A stretch of 28,292 nucleotides of DNA from JAGLHV01 sp023143305 [NCBI: Clostridia bacterium] (GTDB taxonomy: Bacteria; CBDUZB01; JAGLHV01). The stretch is taken from NCBI GenBank assembly GCA_030637025.1, contig DAOVVV010000031.1, positions 1 to 28,292 on the forward strand, written 5' to 3'. Below the pieces are notes generated by a model. It had not been told where the DNA came from. It worked only from the letters and a program-made list of their open reading frames with translations, and searched no databases. Positions 133 through 28,108 of this stretch are shown piece after piece. Position 1 is the stretch's first letter. Each line of letters begins with the position of its first letter. The position numbers and the translations under genes are program-made.

Positions 133-699
133 ATGGCTAAAGAAAAAGCAAAAGAAAAGATTGAAAAAGAGGTCAAAGAGAAAGCAGAAGAAAAAGTTGA
201 GAAACAGGCCAAAGAAAAAACAAAAGAAAAGGTTGAGAAACAGGCCAAAGAAAAACCTAAAAGAAAAACCAGAGTGAAGGAAAAGGATAAAGTAAAAGAG
301 AAAGTTAAAAAAATCAAAGAAGTTAAAGAAGAAGTAAAAAAAGAAAACAAAGAAGTAGCCAAAGAAAAAACAAAAGAAAAGGTCATAGAAAAAACTACTG
401 AGAAAATAAGAATTTACTTAAAAGCTTATGACCATAAAATGTTAGACCAATCTTTGGCAGAAATTGTGGCTAATAGTAAGCGGACAGGAGCGAAGATTTC
501 CGGGCCTATACTGTTGCCTACAAAGATAAGAAGATATACGGTTTTACGGTCGCCGCATGTTGATAAAAAATCAAGAGAACAATTTGAGATGAGGATACAT
601 AAAAGACTGGTAGATATATTGGATCCTACACCTCAAACGGTTGATGCTTTAATGAAGTTGGATTTGCCGACAGGGGTGGATATTCAGATAAAACTATAA
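133..699 (+). CDS. rpsJ: 30S ribosomal protein S10 with a 91-residue Lys/Glu-rich N-terminal extension
   Basis: Residues 92-188 are a complete S10 ([17 protein letters not shown] at its start, TGVDIQIKL at its end). S10 is part of the 30S head and also the NusE antitermination partner of NusB. Family members are about 100 residues; this one is 188. Residues 1-91 are almost only K, E, A and V with scattered T, Q, R and I, alternating in charge, as expected for a long charged helix or disordered tail. A 12-residue unit ([12 protein letters not shown] / [12 protein letters not shown]) is repeated in tandem. The ATG at 133 follows an AGGTGGG site at 121-127. No ATG, GTG or TTG lies close upstream of the S10 core, so translation probably includes the extension. 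A GTG at 274 would still leave about 44 extra residues. Function of the tail is unknown. Confidence 0.93.
196..383 (+). repeat. Internal direct repeats inside the rpsJ extension
   Basis: A 24-base unit beginning GTTGAGAAACAGGCC occurs exactly at 196-219 and 232-255, a 36-base (12-codon) period. A 26-base segment beginning GCCAAAGAAAAAAC occurs exactly at 208-233 and 358-383. All copies keep the rpsJ frame. This pattern suggests growth of the charged tail by in-frame duplication or slippage. Confidence 0.85.
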
Positions 700-20324: not shown

Positions 20325-21645
20325 AAATATTGCCAGAAAATTTGATTATGTGCTTTTTTTTTCTATGGTAATGGTGATTGTTTTAGGAATATTATTTATA
20401 TTTAGCGCTATTCATCGTGGAAAAATAGTTTCCCCTATTTGGACCAAACAATTGATTGCAGTAGGTTTAGGGTTTGGGCTAATGATTATTGCTATGGGGG
20501 TGAATTATCAAATATTCAGGCAATATGGTTATTCTCTTTATTTTTTCTCTTTGATTTTGTTGCTTTTAGTCCTTTTTTTTGGTAAAACTGTGCGGGGAGC
20601 ACAAAGTTGGTTTTCTTTTGGTAATTTTTCTTTTCAACCTTCTGAATTTTCTAAAATTCCTTTTATTTTTGCTTTAGCAATTTATTTAGAAAAAAATCAT
20701 CGTCAGATGTATCGTTTTAAGAGTTTGTTTATTCCTTTTTTAATTGTATTCCTGCCGATACTTTTAATACTGGGGCAACCGGATTTTGGTTCAGCAATGG
20801 TATTAGTTCCCATATGGATGGTAATGCTGTTTATCGGAGGCACAAAATATCTTTACCTTTTATCTTTTCTTCTGTATGGGGTAATTACTTTTGGGATCCC
20901 TTTGTTGATTACCTATCTTTCTTTTCATCAGGATATCTTAATTAATTCGGTAGTTTTAAAATTTATATCAATGGCTACAAGTCATTGGTTGCAGGGAATA
21001 ATATTTATTTTGGTAATACTTGTTATCTTGTCAGTAATTTTTTATCTTTTGATCGATTTGAAATTTGCGATAAATTTTAATAATTTTATGATAACTTCTT
21101 TTCTGGTTATAGGGGGATGCGTTTCTTCTTGTTTGGTGCAGAATTTTTTACTAAAGGGATATCAGAAAAAACGCCTGTTAGCTTTTCTGGACCCCCAGAT
21201 AGATCCATTGGGTTCAGGGTATCATATTATTCAGTCTAAAATTGCTATTGGGTCGGGAGGGTTTTTAGGCAAGGGATTTTTGAACGGCACTCAAACGCAA
21301 TTAGGTTTTTTACCGGAACAGCATACGGATTTTATTGTTTCTGTTGTTGCAGAGGAATGGGGTTTTTTAGGTGCGGGTTTAGTGTTTTTTTTATTTTTTA
21401 TTATTATTTGGCGGGGATTAAAAATAGCTGTAGAAGCAAGAGATAAGTTTGGTAGTTTTCTGGCAGCAGGCATTTCCTGTATGTTTTTATTTTATGCAAT
21501 AATAAATATTGGTATGGTAATGGGAATTATGCCGATAACCGGTTTACCTTTACCCCTGTTTAGTTATGGTGGGTCTGCTTTGGTTTCCGCCATGGTGGCT
21601 ATAGGCTTATTATTAAATATTCATTCAAGAAGGTATACTTATTAA
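20314..21645 (+). CDS. rodA: Peptidoglycan glycosyltransferase RodA, long form
   Basis: A SEDS-family membrane glycosyltransferase that polymerises lipid II with PBP2. GRTVRGAQSW-type sequence is present (GKTVRGAQSWFSFGNFSFQP SEFSK), as are GQPDFGSAMV, DPQIDPLGSGYHIIQSKIAI GSGGFLGKG and FLPEQHTDFIVSVVAEEWGF LGAG. The end, MPITGLPLPLFSYGGSALVS, is canonical. At 443 aa it is about 70 longer than the E. coli protein. The extra part lies in the middle (roughly residues 195-260) and holds one or two additional hydrophobic segments before the CLVQNFLLKGYQKKRLLAF region. Start ATG 20314 overlaps mrdA by 11 bases, with GGAAAGGA upstream. Confidence 0.95.
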   Translation: MAFKNIARKFDYVLFFSMVMVIVLGILFIFSAIHRGKIVSPIWTKQLIAVGLGFGLMIIAMGVNYQIFRQYGYSLYFFSLILLLLVLFFGKTVRGAQSWFSFGNFSFQPSEFSKIPFIFALAIYLEKNHRQMYRFKSLFIPFLIVFLPILLILGQPDFGSAMVLVPIWMVMLFIGGTKYLYLLSFLLYGVITFGIPLLITYLSFHQDILINSVVLKFISMATSHWLQGIIFILVILVILSVIFYLLIDLKFAINFNNFMITSFLVIGGCVSSCLVQNFLLKGYQKKRLLAFLDPQIDPLGSGYHIIQSKIAIGSGGFLGKGFLNGTQTQLGFLPEQHTDFIVSVVAEEWGFLGAGLVFFLFFIIIWRGLKIAVEARDKFGSFLAAGISCMFLFYAIINIGMVMGIMPITGLPLPLFSYGGSALVSAMVAIGLLLNIHSRRYTY

Positions 21646-21726
21646 AAAATGAAAGACGGTTGGTTTCTTACATTTGTTTTAAGAAAGGATAGTAAATTTA
21701 AAAGCAACTTTGATTCAATGATGCTT

Positions 21727-21817
21727 AGAGTTTTTTCAGCTCACTGACAAAACTCTGTAGTCGAATTGATATAAACTCCGTCGCAGGGAGTCGAAGGGGC
21801 CCGCAGTTTGCTGTGGG
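21727..21817. repeat. Three-hairpin repeat-like element upstream of the secretion ATPase gene
   Basis: The 200-base gap after rodA holds no gene but has three inverted repeats in a row. AGAGTTTT (21727-21734) pairs with AAAACTCT (21749-21756), with a further TCAG/CTGA stem inside. ACTCC (21775-21779) pairs with GGAGT (21787-21791). CCCGCAG (21800-21806) pairs with CTGTGGG (21811-21817) around TTTG, with one G-T pair. None is followed by a T-run. The GC-rich second half is unlike the surrounding DNA and reads like a dispersed palindromic element. Confidence 0.6.
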
Positions 21818-21845
21818 GAAGTTGATTATGAAGGAGAAACTTTTT

Positions 21846-24005
21846 ATGCCGGGTAAAGTTATTTCTGTTTTAGATATAGGGAGTCAGATAAATGCTTTAC
21901 TTATAGCTTCGTTATCCATTAGCTTAAAACAAGAAACCAGAAAAAAAGTTGCTTTATTTGATTTCAGTCTTTTCCCGATTAAGGGTAAAATGAAAATTTT
22001 GTTTAATTTTTCCCGGGAAAAGAATTTTATTTCATTACTTCCTTTCATTGACCAGTTAAATGCCCGGATGATGGAGGGATATTTTGATACCCATCCTTCC
22101 GGGATAGATTTATTGAGCGGATGTTTTAATTGGAGTGAGATATCCGGGATAAGGCCGGAGCATTTAATAAAAATAGTAAATCTCCTGTCACAAATATATA
22201 ATTATACTTTAATAAATTTAGATAATGATTTTAATGAAAATTCCCTTGCTTTACTTGATAGTTCTAATTTAATAGTTTTAATAGTTACTCCGGATTATTT
22301 GTCTTTAGAAGGAGCAAAGGGAATTCTTTCTATGCTTTATTCTCTTCACTATGCCCCACAATCAATAAAAATAGTGTTGAACGAAGGAAATACAGAAGAA
22401 GGTATTTCTTCCTCAAAAGTAGAAAATTATTTAAAAAAACAACTATTCTACCGGATTAGTGGTGATAATCATAAAAAAGCTTCATTTAGTACCATAAATA
22501 AGGGCATTACCAATGAGTTTAATTTTAGGCAGATTCCCTTTTATAAATCCGTACAAGGTTTAACATGTAAATTATTAGAAGAAAACATTTTTGTAGCAGA
22601 GGGGTTAGGTAAAGGGCGGTCAACCCATATTGAAAAGAATTTTTCCGATACTAATAGTTTAAAATTAAAAAACAATGAGGATAATGATCAGAATAATATA
22701 AAAAACAAACAATTGATGGATGATAAAATTGACCGGTTGAAATTACTTATTCAAGAGCGGTTGATTAGTGAAATGGATTTAAAAAGATTAAATTTTAAAG
22801 AAGCAGGAAATAATTTAGAAAAAGGCAAAGAAATTAAACAAAAAATTAAAGAAATGGTGGAGAGATTATTAAACGAAGAAGGAGGTTTTGTTACTGATCG
22901 CCAACAACGGGAAAAGATAATATTGGAATTGTTGGATGACATTTTAGGTTTAGGCCCTTTGGAAAAACTTCTGCGGGACCCTGCTGTTTCTGAAATAATG
23001 GTTAATAAGAAAGATGAAGTATATATCGAACAGCAGGGAAAAATTAAATTAACCGGAATTAAGTTATCCAGCAATCGGCAGATTCTTACTATTATTGAAA
23101 GAATAGTTGCTCCTTTGGGAAGACATATAGATGAAAGTTCTCCGTTAGTGGATGCGCGATTAAAAGATGGTTCCCGGGTCAATGCTATTATTCCTCCTTT
23201 GGCTTTAGATGGGCCGGTAGTAACTATTCGTAAATTTATCCAAAAGAAACTTATTCCCGATGATTTAATTGGTTTAGGTTCGATAAGTAAAGAAATGATA
23301 GAATTTATCCGGATTTGTGTTCAACTGAAAAAAAACATTATTATTTCGGGTGGTACCGGGTCGGGGAAGACAACGCTTTTGAATATTATTTCTTCTTTTA
23401 TTCCTCAGGATGAACGAATTATCACTATAGAAGATTCTGCCGAGTTAAAGTTGCCGCAGAAACATGTAGTTAGATTAGAATCCCGTCCACCGAACATTGA
23501 AGGAGAGGGTGAGATTTCTATTCGCAGGTTACTTATTAATTGTTTAAGAATGCGCCCGGATAGAATTATTATTGGTGAATGCAGGGGAGGAGAGGCAATA
23601 GATATGTTACAAGCGATGAATACGGGACATGAAGGGTCATTGACTACTTTACATGCTAATAGTCCCCGGGATTCTTTATCCCGCTTAGAAACAATGGCAT
23701 TAATGTCGGGGATGGAACTTCCTTCACGGGTTATTCGTGACCAAATTGCCAGTACTATTAATATTATTGTTCAGCAAAATCGTTTGGGTGACGGGACAAG
23801 AAAGATAACCTGTATTAGTGAAATAACCGGTTTTAACGGGGATATAATTACAATAACCGATATTTTCAAATTCATTCAGGAAGGAATTAATGACCAGGGA
23901 AAAATAATCGGTAAATTTGAGTTTACGGGAGTAATTCCGTCTTTTATTGCGAAAACAAAATCACATAATGTTTTTTTTGACAGGAATATTTTTCGAAACA
24001 CCTGA
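21846..24005 (+). CDS. Fusion of degenerate CpaE/TadZ-like domain with CpaF/TadA-type secretion ATPase
   Basis: Residues about 300-719 are a CpaF/TadA hexameric ATPase that powers Tad (type IVc) pilus assembly. The Walker A GGTGSGKT is at 502-509, the Asp box IITIEDSAEL at 525-534, Walker B PDRIIIGECRGGEA at 571-584 and the His box GHEGSLTTLHANSPRDS at 594-610. Residues 1-250 align by pattern with CpaE/TadZ, a MinD-like protein: KKVALFDF near 33-40, HPSGIDLL at 83-90, LSQIYNYTLINLDND near 114-128 and LDSSNLIVLIVTPDYLSLEG AK. The loop where KGGVGKTT should be reads LDIGSQINAL, so ATP binding there is doubtful. A polar Asn-rich linker (about 255-295) joins the parts. ATG 21846 (719 aa) has AAGGAG at 21831-21836. 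Confidence 0.92.
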   Translation: MPGKVISVLDIGSQINALLIASLSISLKQETRKKVALFDFSLFPIKGKMKILFNFSREKNFISLLPFIDQLNARMMEGYFDTHPSGIDLLSGCFNWSEISGIRPEHLIKIVNLLSQIYNYTLINLDNDFNENSLALLDSSNLIVLIVTPDYLSLEGAKGILSMLYSLHYAPQSIKIVLNEGNTEEGISSSKVENYLKKQLFYRISGDNHKKASFSTINKGITNEFNFRQIPFYKSVQGLTCKLLEENIFVAEGLGKGRSTHIEKNFSDTNSLKLKNNEDNDQNNIKNKQLMDDKIDRLKLLIQERLISEMDLKRLNFKEAGNNLEKGKEIKQKIKEMVERLLNEEGGFVTDRQQREKIILELLDDILGLGPLEKLLRDPAVSEIMVNKKDEVYIEQQGKIKLTGIKLSSNRQILTIIERIVAPLGRHIDESSPLVDARLKDGSRVNAIIPPLALDGPVVTIRKFIQKKLIPDDLIGLGSISKEMIEFIRICVQLKKNIIISGGTGSGKTTLLNIISSFIPQDERIITIEDSAELKLPQKHVVRLESRPPNIEGEGEISIRRLLINCLRMRPDRIIIGECRGGEAIDMLQAMNTGHEGSLTTLHANSPRDSLSRLETMALMSGMELPSRVIRDQIASTINIIVQQNRLGDGTRKITCISEITGFNGDIITITDIFKFIQEGINDQGKIIGKFEFTGVIPSFIAKTKSHNVFFDRNIFRNT

Positions 24006-24027
24006 AAGATGTTTTTAAATATAAATA

Positions 24028-24193
24028 GATTCCTGCTTTCCAGACTGTGTCATAACTGCTTTTTTCTGTCATCTTCGGGCTTGACCCGGAGATCCAATAA
24101 AATATTATCGTCGGAAAATGGATTCCCGATAAAAGATTTCGGGAATGACAAAGCCAAAAACGGCAATTATGACACAGTCTGTTCGCAGGAATG
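24028..24193. repeat. Nested inverted-repeat element, MITE-like
   Basis: Layered palindromes lie in the gap after the ATPase gene. The outermost is ATTCCTGC (24029-24036) with GCAGGAAT (24185-24192). Next is a 19-base terminal inverted repeat, CAGACTGTGTCATAACTGC (24041-24059) against GCAATTATGACACAGTCTG (24163-24181), 18 of 19 matching. Inside are TGTCAT (24067-24072) and ATGACA (24145-24150), enclosing a GC-rich TTCGGGCTTGACCCGGAG part and a TTCCCGATAAAAGATTTCGGGAA type part. No transposase is encoded, so it resembles a non-autonomous element, possibly one element inserted into another. Short open frames crossing it are not convincing genes. Confidence 0.75.
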
Positions 24194-24194
24194 A

Positions 24195-24220
24195 CCCGCC
24201 TTAAGGACTGGCGGGCAGGC
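24195..24220. repeat. Short palindromic repeat, same ends as the rpsS-rplV element
   Basis: CCCGCC (24195-24200) pairs with GGCGGG (24210-24215) around TTAAGGACT, and a CAGGC tail follows. It starts CCGCCTTA and ends GACTGGCGG like the minus strand of the element at 3503-3554, which has an extra internal hairpin. It abuts the nested element at 24028-24193. Confidence 0.65.
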
Positions 24221-24283
24221 AAAAAAGATAAAAAGCTATTTTGTAAAAGTCTAAATCATAAAATAAAAAGGAGGGTAGTAGAG

Positions 24284-24751
24284 ATGAATTGTTATTGTCA
24301 TCAGGAAGTGAGTAGTGTAGGAGAGTGTGTAGGTTGTGGAAATTTTATTTGTGCCGATTGTAAAGTAGAAATAGAGGGGAGAGTTTATTGCAAAAAATGT
24401 TCGAATGATCTTACTATGGCTCTTAGAAAAAGAAAAGAGCAGACCAATCTTAATATTTCCGAAGAAGAGATTAAAGAAGGAAAGATTTGGGCAATAGCAG
24501 GATATCTGGGAATTCTATGTTTGCTTCCTCTTTTAATAAAGAAAGACAACCAATTTGCACTTTTTCATGGTAAACAGGGTTTGGTGCTTTTTCTTTTTAT
24601 TATCGTTGCCGGATGGATTCCGATCTTTGGATGGTTTATTATTTCACCCCTGGTTTTTATTATGAGTATTATTGGAATAATTAAAGCTTTGATGGGCAAG
24701 TGTTTTGAACTCCCGGTGATAGGAAAAATTGCGGAAAAAATAAAAATGTAA
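24284..24751 (+). CDS. Zinc-finger (B-box-like) membrane protein with DUF4870-like domain
   Basis: Function unknown. The N-terminus holds a cysteine-rich knuckle: Cys3, Cys5, His6, Cys15, Cys18, Cys23, Cys26, Cys36 and Cys39, spaced like a B-box zinc finger (CVGC, CADC and CKKC pairs). A charged stretch (about 42-66) leads to two or three hydrophobic segments (about 70-85, 95-115 and 118-140) with FALFHGKQGLVLFLFIIVAG, which resembles the DUF4870/Tic20-like membrane fold. ATG 24284 (155 aa) has AAAAGGAGGG at 24266-24275; the frame extends upstream into the repeat element and that part is rejected. It lies between the CpaF-type ATPase and tadB genes, so a role linked to the pilus is possible but not shown. 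Confidence 0.8.
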   Translation: MNCYCHQEVSSVGECVGCGNFICADCKVEIEGRVYCKKCSNDLTMALRKRKEQTNLNISEEEIKEGKIWAIAGYLGILCLLPLLIKKDNQFALFHGKQGLVLFLFIIVAGWIPIFGWFIISPLVFIMSIIGIIKALMGKCFELPVIGKIAEKIKM

Positions 24752-24802
24752 AGGTTAAGATAACAGAAAAAACGAAAGATTAAAAAGGGAAAGGAAGTAG
24801 AA

Positions 24803-25681
24803 GTGGAAATTGTTTTATTTAAAGCGTTAATTTTATCAGCTGTTTTTGCGGGAGTGATTTGGGGTGTTTTTAGAATTGTTTCTTTCTTTGACTCTTTTAG
24901 AAAATCATCAGTTGATAAAAAAAAAGATAAGGAAAAACGCTTATATGGAAAAGAGCGGCTGATAAATATTTTATTGCAAAAACCAAAAGCAAAAGGTGCC
25001 TGGTTAATTGAGCTTTTTAGTTTGGCTTTGGGAATAACTATTGGATATTTATTTTCCGGGAGATTTTTATGGGGTTTTGTTTTAGGGGGAATTAGTTTTT
25101 TTATTCCCTCTCTTTGGGCAAAGAGGGAATTCCGGTTATTTATGGATAAGTTTAACCGGCAGCTTATTGATGGATTGGTATTAATGGCTAATTCTTTGCG
25201 GGCGGGAATGAGTTTTTTCCAGGGAATGGAAATAATGGTTAAGGAAAGTGATTGGCCTCTTTCTGTGTATTTTGGCAGAGTAATTCAGGAAATAAATCTG
25301 GGTATGTCTCCACAGGAAGCATTAAATGGATTGGTAGAACGTATGCCGGATAAAGAATTAAAGATAGTAGTTGCTGCAATTAATATTTCCCGTCAAACAG
25401 GGGGAAACCTGAGTGAAATCATGGATAATCTTGCTTTTACTATGCGTGAAAGGGAAAAAATTCAGGGTAAAATAAATGTACTTACCGCCCAGGGGAAAAT
25501 TTCCGGGTGGGTTGTGGGGATAATTCCCTTTCTTTTAATGTTTATTTTAAACTTAATGTCTCCTGAGATGATGTGGCCTCTTTTTCATACTTTACCCGGA
25601 TATGCAACTATTTTTGTAATTTGCTTTATGGTCGGGATAGCTGCTTTAATTATAAAAAAAATAGTTTCGATTGATATATGA
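24803..25681 (+). CDS. tadB: Tad pilus assembly platform protein TadB
   Basis: An inner-membrane type II secretion F-domain protein that works with TadC and the CpaF ATPase to extrude Flp pilin. One TM lies near the N-terminus (about 4-24), two follow about 66-102, and two lie at the end (about 233-288). The cytoplasmic F-domain between them shows FNRQLIDGLVLMANSLRAGM SFFQGMEIMVKE and INISRQTGGNLSEIMDNLAF TMRER, the classic TadB signatures. It is 292 aa, normal. The start is GTG 24803 behind AAAGGAAG (24790-24797). It is separated from tadC by a 319-base gap holding repeats. Confidence 0.93.
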   Translation: MEIVLFKALILSAVFAGVIWGVFRIVSFFDSFRKSSVDKKKDKEKRLYGKERLINILLQKPKAKGAWLIELFSLALGITIGYLFSGRFLWGFVLGGISFFIPSLWAKREFRLFMDKFNRQLIDGLVLMANSLRAGMSFFQGMEIMVKESDWPLSVYFGRVIQEINLGMSPQEALNGLVERMPDKELKIVVAAINISRQTGGNLSEIMDNLAFTMREREKIQGKINVLTAQGKISGWVVGIIPFLLMFILNLMSPEMMWPLFHTLPGYATIFVICFMVGIAALIIKKIVSIDI

Positions 25682-25765
25682 TAAAGACGGTTAAAAAATA
25701 CGGTTGGAAAAGTTTTATTGGTTTAAATTTGTTTAAATTAGTTAAAAGATAAAAGACAAAACAAT

Positions 25766-25800
25766 TTTTACCCCTTTGAAAAAGGGGGTTAGGGAGATTT
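25766..25800. repeat. C-rich/G-rich palindromic repeat with hairpin
   Basis: CCCCTTT (25771-25777) pairs perfectly with AAAGGGG (25781-25787) around GAA. It is followed by GGTTAGGGAGATTT. The segment 25784-25800, read on the minus strand, matches 28136-28152 at 15 of 17 positions, so the family occurs at least twice here. Translations across such elements give the PLFQRG-type peptide often mistaken for genes. Confidence 0.65.
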
Positions 25801-25920
25801 GTGATTATTTGTGACACAGTATTTATGGGTTTGAACGGGGAAAATAAAGGCAAAATATGTTTTTCTCTGGACGCATAATTTTACCCTGCGGGCACGCAAA
25901 AACAAGCTAGTTATTTAAAT

Positions 25921-25977
25921 GTAGGGGCGACCTTTGGTCGCCCGAAAGACTCAAAGGGTGGGCAAGCCCACTCCTAC
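25921..25977. repeat. Double-hairpin element with GTAGGGG ends
   Basis: The ends GTAGGGG (25921-25927) and CTCCTAC (25971-25977) are inverted repeats with one mismatch. Inside, GGGCGACC (25925-25932) pairs perfectly with GGTCGCCC (25936-25943), and GTGGGC (25958-25963) with GCCCAC (25966-25971). It is GC-rich in AT-rich surroundings and has no coding content. It lies 23 bases upstream of tadC. Confidence 0.7.
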
Positions 25978-26000
25978 GCGAAAAAAAGGATAAGCAAAAA

Positions 26001-26849
26001 ATGTATTGGTTAATATTGGTTTTTCTTTTTAGTTCGGTGTTTTTATTAGTGATGGGTTTTTTTTCGATAAGAGAAAAAATATTTTTCAATCCGACATTAA
26101 CCGGGTTAACCGGTTCTTTATCCTGGATAATCGGTAAAATACATTGGCCGTTTTTTGAAAATTTGCGGGATAAAATAAAAAGACAATTGTTTATGGCCGG
26201 TCTTCCCAATGAATATCCGGATTATGTTATTGCCGGGTATTGTTTAAATGGTTTAGTGTTTTCTTTTTTAGGAGGAGTGCTTTCTCTGATTTTTTTTAAT
26301 TTGGTAAAAGGATATATTTTAGCCGGTTTTTTTATTTTAGGATTTGTTTTAGCCGCTTATAAGATTAAAGAAAAAATAAAGAAAAGGCATTGTAATATTT
26401 TGCGTGCCCTGCCGGATGTTTTGGATATTTTAACAGTTGCGGTGGAAGCAGGGCTGGATTTTAATGCGGCATTAATTAAATTAATTGAATTAGAAGATGA
26501 AAAAAATCCTTTAGTAAAAGAGATTTTTCAAATGCAGCAGGAGATTTATGTAGGGAACAGCCGCATAGAAGCTTTACGCAATATGGCAAGAAGGGTAGAT
26601 GAGCCGGGGTTATCTGCGGTTTGTGCTTCTTTGATACAAGCAATTAAAATGGGAACAAGTCTTGGTCCTATTTTACGTCTTCAATCGGAACAAATTAGAG
26701 TTCAACGTTTTCAGAGAGCAGAAAAATTGGCTGGTGAAGCTCCTGTAAAAATGCTTTTTCCTTTGATTTTTCTGATTTTACCAACGATCTTTCTTGTTTT
26801 ATTTGTTCCGTTAATTTTGACTTATATAACCAGTGGTGTGGAATTTTAG
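26001..26849 (+). CDS. tadC: Tad pilus assembly platform protein TadC
   Basis: The second F-domain protein of the Tad inner-membrane platform. Hydrophobic segments lie at about residues 2-20, 70-110 (two) and 250-276. The cytoplasmic signature is RALPDVLDILTVAVEAGLDF NAALIKL, followed by MQQEIYVGNSRIEALRNMAR R and LSAVCASLIQAIKMGTSLGP ILR, then RAEKLAGEAPVKMLFPLIFL ILP. At 282 aa it is typical. ATG 26001 has AAAAAGGA 10 bases upstream. It is the last + strand gene in the window and is convergent with the sensor gene. Confidence 0.93.
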   Translation: MYWLILVFLFSSVFLLVMGFFSIREKIFFNPTLTGLTGSLSWIIGKIHWPFFENLRDKIKRQLFMAGLPNEYPDYVIAGYCLNGLVFSFLGGVLSLIFFNLVKGYILAGFFILGFVLAAYKIKEKIKKRHCNILRALPDVLDILTVAVEAGLDFNAALIKLIELEDEKNPLVKEIFQMQQEIYVGNSRIEALRNMARRVDEPGLSAVCASLIQAIKMGTSLGPILRLQSEQIRVQRFQRAEKLAGEAPVKMLFPLIFLILPTIFLVLFVPLILTYITSGVEF

Positions 26850-26916: not shown

Positions 26917-28014
26917 TCATTGTGATGATAAGGGGTAGAATAAGATGATGCCGCCTAAATGATTGTTTTTCTGATCTTTAATCATAGTAATTTTTATGTT
27001 ATGTTTTGTTTTTTCTGTTGGAAAATATTCTTCAACTGTTTGGTTAGGGTTATTTAAAGCTTTTTTTATTATGTTTAGAATTTTTGGATTTTTAAATATA
27101 TCTAAAATATGGCAATTTAAAATATCATTCTTTTTTAAATTTAAAATTTTGCACGCAGAATTGTTTATAAAAATAATTTTATTGTTTGAATCCAGTAATA
27201 AATTTCCTTCGTTTAGTGTTTGTCCTATATTTTTTAGAAGTATATTCATGCATTCTTTGGAAGATAGTGATTGGTTTTGGAAAAAAAGTTGTTCGCTTTT
27301 GAAGTGTTTAAATATGTTATTAATTTTTTGTTTAAGACTGTTAAATCCTCCGAATTCTTTTTGTATGGGAGAGGATGATTGAGGAAGAGGAAAGGATTCA
27401 ATAACTGAGTTTAAATTTTTTAAAGGGGCAGTGAGCGTGAACTTTAGTATTGTCAGGAGCCATAAACCGATAAGCAATAAAGAGATAAAAATAGTCAGAT
27501 AAATAGTATTTTTTATGGTTGTTAATTTTTGAGTAATAGGCAAACTGCTTGTTTTTATTTGTAGTATTCCAATAGTTTTGTCCTTTTTTTTAAGGGGAAA
27601 AACAATATAAATATTTTTTTTATTTTTGTAAATTAAAGGTTTTTTTGATTTTAAAGCTTGTTTTATTTCTAAACCCCGGTACATTTTCCCCCATCGATTT
27701 AGCTGGCTATGTGCAAGTATTTTACCTTCGGGATTTAAAATCATAGCATAAGCGACATTTGTGTTTTCAGTGATTTGGTTTATATATTGTAAAAGATTTA
27801 GGTCGTTTTTGTCTTCAAGTGCTTTTTCACAGGCAGGAATGATTTTTTTACCTAAGGAAATAATTTGTTCGGTTAGTTCTTCAACAAAGATAAGTTTTTG
27901 CTGGTAAAGGGAAGAAGCAGATAATAAAAACAAAATTATTCCAATCACAAAAAGAGTAGGAAAGATAATTTGTAAAATGATATTTGATTTAAACTTATTA
28001 ATTAATTTATTCAT
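26917..28014 (-). CDS. Two-TM sensor protein with PAS domain, lacking a kinase output domain
   Basis: A membrane sensor of 365 aa. TM1 spans about residues 12-34, an extracytoplasmic sensor (Cache-like: YAMILNPEGKILAHSQL, then FPLKKKDKTIGILQIKT) about 35-165, and TM2 about 168-192. A HAMP-like segment begins TAPLKNLNSVIESF, and a PAS domain spans about 262-360 (LLLDSNNKIIFINNSACKIL, then GGIILFYPL). The protein stops right where a histidine kinase H-box would follow, and no kinase sequence lies in the 67 bases before the convergent tadC. It may be a truncated kinase or a stand-alone sensor. ATG at 28014 is chosen because the upstream TTG 28089 lies inside the promoter; no clear ribosome site is seen. 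Confidence 0.8.
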   Translation of the reverse strand: MNKLINKFKSNIILQIIFPTLFVIGIILFLLSASSLYQQKLIFVEELTEQIISLGKKIIPACEKALEDKNDLNLLQYINQITENTNVAYAMILNPEGKILAHSQLNRWGKMYRGLEIKQALKSKKPLIYKNKKNIYIVFPLKKKDKTIGILQIKTSSLPITQKLTTIKNTIYLTIFISLLLIGLWLLTILKFTLTAPLKNLNSVIESFPLPQSSSPIQKEFGGFNSLKQKINNIFKHFKSEQLFFQNQSLSSKECMNILLKNIGQTLNEGNLLLDSNNKIIFINNSACKILNLKKNDILNCHILDIFKNPKILNIIKKALNNPNQTVEEYFPTEKTKHNIKITMIKDQKNNHLGGIILFYPLSSQ

Positions 28015-28079
28015 TTTTAATTTTGAAGTTATTAGGAATAAACTTTTGAAAGTAATATTTCTATCTTTTTTATAAGAAG

Positions 28080-28108
28080 AATATAACAAATTTTTTCTTG
28101 ATTGGCAA
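28080..28108 (-). promoter_or_regulatory. Sigma-70-type promoter of the sensor gene
   Basis: On the minus strand TTGCCA (28108-28103) and TATATT (28085-28080) are separated by 17 bases, and a TGT just upstream of the -10 gives an extended -10. Transcription would start near 28073, leaving about 60 bases before ATG 28014. Found by eye; no experimental support. Confidence 0.5.

What the first reader, a model, noticed from the sequence alone, without database searches (positions are those of the whole stretch)
21846..24005. TadZ-like and CpaF proteins fused, with the MinD-like Walker A loop destroyed
CpaE/TadZ and CpaF are normally separate neighbouring genes. Here they are one 719-residue protein. 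The CpaF half keeps every catalytic motif, while the N-terminal half keeps HPSGIDLL and the central strands but has LDIGSQINAL where KGGVGKTT belongs. A permanently attached, nucleotide-free localisation domain would tie the pilus motor to its polar or site marker.
Basis: partly seen in the sequence, partly recalled or inferred. Interest (0 to 1): 0.6.

Follow-up and report, generated by a model that had tools for sequence, protein, structure and literature searches.

The report
Pilus motor fused to dead TadZ
In this bacterium two Tad-pilus proteins that are usually separate, the positioning protein TadZ and the motor CpaF, are one protein whose TadZ part has lost its ATP-binding loop; the joint protein is a real, conserved variant that also occurs in several other bacterial lineages.

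Summary
Window 21846-24005 encodes one 719-residue protein. Residues 1-250 are a TadZ/CpaE domain (hhalign to standalone TadZ: probability 99.7%, E 3.9e-27); residues 296-719 are a complete CpaF (E ~1e-118 to solved CpaF). It is no frameshift: a second assembly of the species and two sister species keep it. The TadZ domain has lost its P-loop, the Walker B Asp and one A' Asp, yet is under purifying selection (dN/dS 0.18-0.29). 'Normally separate' needs amending: uninterrupted fusions occur in at least 16 of 386 sampled genomes and in 45 of 45 CpaF ORFs read from one phylum, which includes a genome matching cultured Endomicrobium proavitum in length. A changed P-loop lysine is common in standalone TadZ (31 of 50), but loss of the whole loop was seen only in fusions (25 of 60 against 0 of 50). 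Best explanation: covalent attachment replaced ATP-controlled recruitment, so the active site decayed while a scaffold role stayed. That mechanism is inferred, not tested. New variant of a known kind.

The parts
21846..24005 (+). TadZ-CpaF fusion gene, 719 aa
   Evidence: orthologs L008=L037 (G001) and L009+L193 (G002)
21846..22595 (+). pseudo-TadZ domain, residues 1-250
   Evidence: hhalign to standalone TadZ E 3.9e-27; PDB 3ea0 2.9e-9; dN/dS 0.18-0.29
21870..21905 (+). site of the former P-loop (residues 9-20, LDIGSQINALLI)
   Evidence: motif table
21954..21971 (+). A' motif, residues 37-42 (LFDFSL): Asp39 kept, second position Ser41
22215..22217 (+). Walker B position, Asn124 in place of Asp
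22596..22730 (+). poorly conserved linker, residues 251-295
   Evidence: 53-58% identity between the window and its two relatives
22731..24002 (+). CpaF/TadA motor domain, residues 296-719
   Evidence: PF00437, TIGR03819 (below cut-off), PDB 8rkd/8rjf/9e24
23349..23375 (+). CpaF Walker A GGTGSGKTT, residues 502-510
   Evidence: sequence; alignment
24284..24751 (+). 155-aa protein with cysteine-rich N terminus and membrane segments (DUF4870-like, below cut-off), conserved in the operon
24803..25681 (+). TadB
   Evidence: PF00482 1.1e-19
26001..26849 (+). TadC
   Evidence: PF00482 2.5e-14
26917..28089 (-). convergent membrane protein with sCache and PAS, no kinase domain in Pfam; a homolog lies at the same place in G058 and G406
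   Evidence: homology 4.6e-13 and 2.4e-6

Best explanation
The gene makes a Tad-pilus motor subunit with its own built-in TadZ. SHOWN: a TadZ domain and a full CpaF motor are one chain; the TadZ half lacks the P-loop and the Walker B Asp; the chain is conserved in the genus and under purifying selection; in a sister species it follows a secretin gene and precedes TadB and TadC on one contig. INFERRED: CpaF forms the usual hexamer, so each motor carries six TadZ domains in fixed 1:1 ratio. In Caulobacter, by contrast, six separate CpaE dimers have been modelled around the CpaF hexamer. The TadZ domain works without nucleotide as a scaffold that docks the motor to the inner-membrane platform or site marker. 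Because covalent linkage and motor hexamerisation already hold the domains together, ATP-dependent dimerisation and recruitment was no longer needed and the active site decayed, perhaps through a Lys-to-Gln and Asp-to-Asn stage still seen in seven related fused proteins (KGGVGQT, DFN, Asn at Walker B).
For: Homology of both halves. Fused frame in the window, a second assembly of its species, and sister species. Loss of P-loop, Walker B Asp and one A' Asp. dN/dS of the pseudo-TadZ 0.18-0.29, like the Walker-A-bearing fused paralog's TadZ (0.22), with TadA at 0.09-0.12. Tad locus around it: on one contig of G001, the end of the secretin gene, fusion, small membrane protein, TadB, start of TadC; on G002 C179, Flp-like, TadE/G-like, CpaB, secretin, start of the fusion. 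No standalone TadZ found in G000; the window's N half is its best TadZ match (2.3e-40). Whole-loop loss in 25 of 60 fused against 0 of 50 standalone TadZ. Caulobacter CpaE packs against CpaF in situ (PMC13170226, passages).
Against: No structure: the AlphaFold job with two sequences failed (pLDDT 34). I found no localisation or biochemical data for a fused protein in the papers searched. The standalone control set was found with a loop-bearing profile, so strongly decayed standalone TadZ could be missed. The fused chain lacks the REC domain thought to link CpaE dimers, so the ring geometry may differ. Lysine loss is frequent in unfused TadZ, so fusion is not needed for that step. 22 of 60 fused TadZ domains keep GK[ST], so fusion alone does not bring about decay. 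Counts are not phylogenetically independent; one single loss of the loop is not rejected (p-AU 0.27). L135, the weakly supported sister of the window clade (82/78), keeps the Walker B Asp, which does not fit a simple order of decay.
Confidence: 0.6

Rival explanations
1. The N-terminal domain is mainly an allosteric regulator of the motor: it takes the place of the disordered N-terminal region (NTD0) of Caulobacter CpaF and sets extension versus retraction, rather than placing the machine.
For: NTD0 loss reduces retraction and NTD0 could gate the nucleotide pocket (PMC11300603, passages). FHA domains occupy the same N-terminal place in other CpaF (by eye; class III in PMC12019362 section 10). 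The linker is variable.
Against: The domain is homologous to TadZ, whose described role is localisation and recruitment, and no standalone TadZ was found in G000 to do that job.
Confidence: 0.2
2. The TadZ half partners with another ParA/MinD-type protein (for example the Walker-A-bearing fused paralog in a mixed hexamer), which supplies the nucleotide.
For: G001 and G002 carry a second fused protein with QKGMGKT.
Against: The held genome of the window's species (94.7% complete) gave no such paralog, and G058 and G406 gave one match each at E <= 1e-100.
Confidence: 0.1
3. The TadZ half is a decaying relic with no function; only CpaF matters.
For: The catalytic residues are gone, and in family f57 the domain is barely recognisable as TadZ (hhalign 47.5%, E 1.9e-4).
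Against: dN/dS 0.18-0.29 over the domain and long identical stretches between species. The f57 proteins read keep a similar total length (ORFs 661-697 aa apart from the incomplete L129).
Confidence: 0.06
4. Assembly or sequencing artefact that joined two genes.
For: The lineage is known from fragmented drafts; the upstream neighbour differs from the sister species.
Against: The fused frame is in a second assembly that differs at 4 of 3825 bases and in sister species; the same architecture is on a single-contig genome (G406).
Confidence: 0.01

Closest known systems
TadZ/CpaE (Tad pilus localisation factor, MinD/ParA superfamily)
   Same: Residues 2-246 align with the ATPase domain of standalone TadZ and keep the HxSGxxLL stretch; altered Walker A loops are normal for TadZ.
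   Different: Fused to CpaF, no REC domain, and the whole P-loop plus Walker B Asp lost rather than only the lysine.
CpaF/TadA (Tad pilus motor ATPase)
   Same: N-terminal and catalytic domains with all motifs; best solved match is CpaF.
   Different: Carries a TadZ domain. A published survey of 292 CpaF orthologs names three classes (none, disordered region, FHA) and no TadZ class (PMC12019362 section 10).
FHA-CpaF (class III)
   Same: A folded domain fused N-terminally to CpaF.
   Different: FHA binds phosphothreonine peptides; here the domain is TadZ.
Fused pseudo-TadZ-CpaF of family f57 (G058; G406, Endomicrobium proavitum by length)
   Same: Same domain order, P-loop lost, gene order fusion-TadB-TadC with a homologous convergent membrane protein.
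   Different: N-terminal domain more diverged; G058's protein is 42% identical to the window's over the whole protein; no small cysteine-rich protein between fusion and TadB.

Membership tests
TadZ/CpaE | MinD/ParA-type domain homologous to TadZ | tested here: met
   hhalign E 3.9e-27 over columns 2-246; A4 profile hit 2.3e-40
TadZ/CpaE | P-loop (often with the lysine changed) | tested here: not met
   Loop absent in window, G001, G002; kept in 50 of 50 standalone TadZ
TadZ/CpaE | N-terminal atypical REC domain | tested here: not met
   The protein begins with the ATPase domain; no response-regulator match in Pfam
TadZ/CpaE | Separate protein beside cpaF in a Tad locus | tested here: not met
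   One ORF; Tad genes are beside it in G001 and G002
TadZ/CpaE | Localises and recruits other Tad parts | not testable with these tools
   needs microscopy
CpaF/TadA | N-terminal domain plus RecA-type domain with Walker A, Walker B, Asp and His boxes | tested here: met
CpaF/TadA | Encoded with TadB and TadC | tested here: met
   24803-25681 and 26001-26849
CpaF/TadA | NCBIfam TadA model TIGR03819 at its curated cut-off | tested here: not met
   313.4 bits against a cut-off of 373.15; E 1.9e-93. The solved-CpaF match stands beside it, so I do not take this alone as against CpaF membership
MinD/ParA-type ATPase (enzyme) | deviant Walker A, A' Asp pair, Walker B Asp | tested here: not met
   Walker A lost, one of two A' Asp kept, Walker B Asp is Asn
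FHA-CpaF class III | N-terminal FHA domain | tested here: not met
   No FHA match in Pfam for the protein

The most novel reading that the evidence does not exclude
TadZ-CpaF is a fourth architectural class of Tad motor, old, present in several phyla and widespread in Elusimicrobiota. In it, covalent tethering made the TadZ ATP switch dispensable: the active site was first turned off by amide swaps (K to Q, D to N, D to N) and then, in the window genus and in the Endomicrobium family among others, lost its loop altogether, leaving a nucleotide-independent TadZ scaffold built into the motor hexamer. (Probability lowered from 0.5 to 0.45 on re-check, because L135, weakly placed as sister of the window clade, keeps its Walker B Asp.)
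Probability: 0.45. Interest if true: 0.62.

Novelty: new variant of a known kind. Interest (0 to 1): 0.5.

Why it matters
What ATP does in TadZ, and whether TadZ acts on the motor directly, is open as far as I know. A natural fusion suggests that the two act at the same place in the machine. The clades that lost the nucleotide site suggest that a TadZ fused to its motor can do without it. The fixed 1:1 ratio also gives a clear structural prediction (six TadZ domains per motor) against the six CpaE dimers modelled in Caulobacter.

Tried and rejected
Artefact (frameshift, chimera): rejected by the second assembly and the sister species.

A unique oddity of this genome: rejected.

The second structure job was not used.

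Viral contigs: the scan with the fused profile gave only five CpaF pieces, not used. The genome-contig scan found one relative, L037.

First tree (59 TadA domains) treated L018 as 'separate' before I saw that it is a fusion; its count of 5 fusion changes is therefore too high and is replaced (3 changes). In that tree L018 was the sister of the window clade (99/97); with more rows it groups with family f57 and the window clade stands next to L135, so I drop that sister claim. For the later trees I left out four near-duplicates (L061, L125, L134, L144) of 62 fused rows and used 15 of the 37 CpaF rows labelled 'separate'. On them a single fused clade is not rejected (p-AU 0.068), nor is a single loss of the loop (p-AU 0.27), so the number of fusion events and of loop losses is open.

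I first thought the degenerate gene belonged to a reduced locus of motor and platform only. Searches showed that in sister species it follows a secretin gene and, on the same contig or a neighbouring one, cpaB and pilin-like genes. A prepilin peptidase was not looked for.

The classes 'K substituted' and 'loop lost' are my own rule; rows such as KEGINQS, KEALGQA and KEGLYQT lie between them and were counted as lost. The rule did not ask for K/R at the first loop position while that did; by inspection of the table no fused row changes class under the looser rule.

Full report
What is there. Window 21846-24005 (+) is one open frame of 719 codons. An AAGGAG lies just before ATG 21846. The C half is a complete CpaF/TadA: T2SSE 1.5e-60, TIGR03819 1.9e-93 though below that model's cut-off, and solved CpaF (8rkd, 8rjf, 9e24) at about 1e-118. 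The N half has no Pfam family above cut-off. It does match minD_arch at 4.2e-6, below that model's cut-off, and PDB 3ea0 at 2.9e-9. As a profile of three species it matches a profile of 11 standalone TadZ ATPase domains with probability 99.7% and E 3.9e-27 over columns 2-246.

The active site. In an alignment of 62 fused proteins the window has GSQI-NAL where L045 has KGGVGKTT, Asn124 at the Walker B Asp, and Ser41 at the second A' Asp; Asp39 is kept. G001 (LDVGSRTNALL) and G002 (LDIGSRTSALL) show the same loop loss. The MinD residue roles are recalled, not from a call.

It is real and it is kept. The held assembly of the window's species, G000, matches window 20346-24170 with 4 differences in 3825 bases. 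Orthologs at about 81% identity in two sister species are also fused. In G002 the gene is split over contigs C179 (residues 1-61) and C2 (from residue 45); their 52-base overlap has 6 mismatches, so they seem to come from different strains or copies and the join is inferred. G001's copy is whole, on C34, which is L037, JAUVLC010000146.1, a metagenome-assembled genome labelled Clostridia. dN/dS of the TadZ domain is 0.20, 0.18 and 0.29 in the three pairs; of the CpaF domain 0.12, 0.11 and 0.09. A fused paralog that still has a Walker A (QKGMGKT, in G001 and G002) gives 0.22 and 0.11.

Its place in a Tad locus. In the window the fusion is followed by a small cysteine-rich membrane protein, TadB, TadC and a convergent sCache-PAS protein. 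G002 C2 has homologs of all of these in the same order. G001 C34 carries, on one contig, the end of a secretin gene (94% identity over 186 residues to that of G002), about 310 bases, the fusion, the small protein, TadB and the start of TadC. G002 C179 carries two Flp-like pilin genes and TadE/TadG-like genes (all below Pfam cut-offs), CpaB (PF16976 1.6e-25) and the secretin (PF00263 2.7e-37), which ends 10 bases before the start of the fusion. I did not look for a prepilin peptidase. In the window the upstream neighbour is rodA instead, in both assemblies, so the window species has a rearrangement with a breakpoint in 21646-21834, or both assemblies share a wrong join. Its pilin-like genes and CpaB lie on contig C37, which ends inside cpaB. 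No second CpaF-type motor was found in G000 and no other TadB/TadC pair; its completeness is given as 94.7%.

How common the fusion is. In one search, 74 of 386 genomes had a match at E <= 1e-170. At least 16 of 386 had an uninterrupted ORF over the whole fused profile: 15 without any stop, and G074, whose stop lies behind column 720. This undercounts, since strongly decayed fusions such as G058's match that profile only over CpaF. In 13 further rows the two genes lie in the same frame with one to three stops in the stretch, so tandem tadZ-tadA in one frame is common and a fusion would need little. The two phyla of the first distant hits gave 2 of 2 and 4 full-length among 5 (the fifth, L046, is cut by a contig end). 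In the phylum of G058, 233 of 294 genomes had a match at E <= 1e-100. I read 45 CpaF ORFs (44 genes) of it: the 30 loci that the search returned, best first, and 15 stretches that I picked from other families and G406. All 45 have a TadZ-like or pseudo-TadZ N terminus, L129 only in part; several f57 proteins reach that verdict through the profile that includes G058's own, not through standalone TadZ. The other matches, some in short ORFs, were not read. G406 of that phylum has one contig of 1,588,979 bases, the length published for Endomicrobium proavitum, phylum Elusimicrobia (PMC4505116, whole text); the naming is an inference from length. The 19 genes of its family f57 that I read over the loop all lack it. 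Homology of that family's N domain to TadZ is weaker: 47.5%, E 1.9e-4 to standalone TadZ, and 91.8%, E 7.2e-7 to the window's.

Is loop loss special? Of the 62 fused rows, 22 have GK[ST], 13 a changed lysine, 25 have lost the loop and 2 do not cover it. Of the 55 standalone TadZ rows with E <= 7e-41 I read 50 (30 returned loci and 20 fetched stretches): 19 have GK[ST], 31 a changed lysine and none has lost the loop. One of them, L212, is a 772-residue ORF whose extra part I did not identify. The control was picked with a loop-bearing profile, which scores the window's domain at 2.3e-40 but does not find the f57 ones in G058 and G406, so it is fair only for decay up to about the window's degree. 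The fused rows are rich in one phylum, and rows are not independent.

Trees. On 73 CpaF domains (careful) the window clade, the KGGVGQT group, L135 (KGGCGQT) and the 20 other loop-less rows form one side of a branch (support 98/90). In all seven KGGVGQT rows the A' motif reads DFN and the Walker B column has Asn, which suggests a first stage of amide swaps before the loop went. Against this, L135, the weakly supported sister of the window clade (82/78), has DFC and keeps the Walker B Asp. Fused versus separate needs at least 3 changes on the tree; one fused clade (p-AU 0.068) and one loop-less clade (p-AU 0.27) are not rejected.

How it may work. TadZ/CpaE localises Tad machines and recruits other parts (PMC6668835, passages; PMC5182063, passages). 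In Caulobacter six CpaE dimers have been fitted round the CpaF hexamer, touching its base in the piliated state, with REC domains proposed to link dimers (PMC13170226, passages). The fused chain has no REC domain and a 1:1 ratio. I propose that hexamerisation of CpaF holds six TadZ domains in place, so an ATP-controlled dimer is no longer needed and the domain serves as a fixed scaffold. The main rival is an allosteric role like that of the disordered N terminus of Caulobacter CpaF (PMC11300603, passages). None of this is tested here; the structure prediction with two sequences failed. That 22 of 60 fused TadZ domains keep GK[ST] shows that fusion permits, but does not force, the decay.

Literature. 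Searches (9 of 10 searches; listings) showed no paper whose title or shown abstract describes a TadZ/CpaE-CpaF fusion; of the papers listed I opened eight, in whole or by passages. PMC12019362, section 10, sorts 292 CpaF orthologs into three classes without TadZ. PMC8809381 (passages) reports Tad-like regions in E. proavitum and Elusimicrobium minutum, but its main text has no CpaE or CpaF. PMC8513845 (passages) reports changed deviant Walker A motifs in Liberibacter CpaE. The library holds open-licence papers only, so absence there is weak evidence.

Verdict. Observation confirmed; interpretation partly supported and widened. New variant of a known kind.

Noticed in passing
window 21646-21834: The fusion follows rodA here, whereas in G001 and G002 it follows a secretin gene (cpaC); a 22-base stretch at 21749-21770 recurs in L183 and L184. 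A rearrangement or a shared wrong join.
   Followed up: partly
window 24040-24184: Inverted repeat (cagactgtgtcata.../...tatgacacagtctg) between the fusion and the next gene; the held contig C371 ends at window 24170.
   Followed up: no
window 24171-25946: The held assembly of the same species breaks here: C371 ends at window 24170 and C75 resumes at 25947; tadB was not found in it by a T2SSF search. The rest of the stretch was not searched for.
   Followed up: partly
window 26917-28089 (-): sCache-PAS membrane protein without a kinase or other output domain in Pfam, convergent to tadC; a homolog sits at the same place in G058 and G406.
   Followed up: partly
window 24284-24751: Small protein with a cysteine-rich N terminus and membrane segments inside the Tad operon, conserved in three species; in Caulobacter a zinc-finger membrane protein (ZitP) is needed for pili (PMC5182063, passages), but no homology was tested.
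   Followed up: no
window 133-699: The ribosomal protein S10 frame begins with about 85 residues of Lys/Glu-rich repeats before the normal S10 sequence (by eye).
   Followed up: no
L105, L106 (G002 C112, G001 C169): Two of the three species have a second Tad locus with a fused TadZ-CpaF that keeps a Walker A loop (QKGMGKT).
   Followed up: yes
L193 end and L104 start (G002 C179 and C2): The two contigs that share the fusion gene overlap by 52 bases at 88% identity, so the draft genome seems to mix strains or copies.
   Followed up: partly
L012, L013, L016, L019, L023, L074, L078: FHA-CpaF fusions, the other N-terminal addition to CpaF (recognised by eye from the sequence, not by a profile search).
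   Followed up: no
L059, L060, L061, L132, L133, L136, L137: Fused TadZ with KGGVGQT, DFN and Asn at Walker B: a site that looks switched off by amide swaps while the loop is still there.
   Followed up: partly
L203, L207 (550 and 571 aa standalone TadZ ORFs; cf. L015) and L212 (772 aa): TadZ ORFs longer than usual; L015 shows a membrane-type C-terminal extension, the extra part of L212 was not identified.
   Followed up: no
window 25740-26000: Dispersed repeat pieces between tadB and tadC that recur in other contigs of the genus.
   Followed up: no
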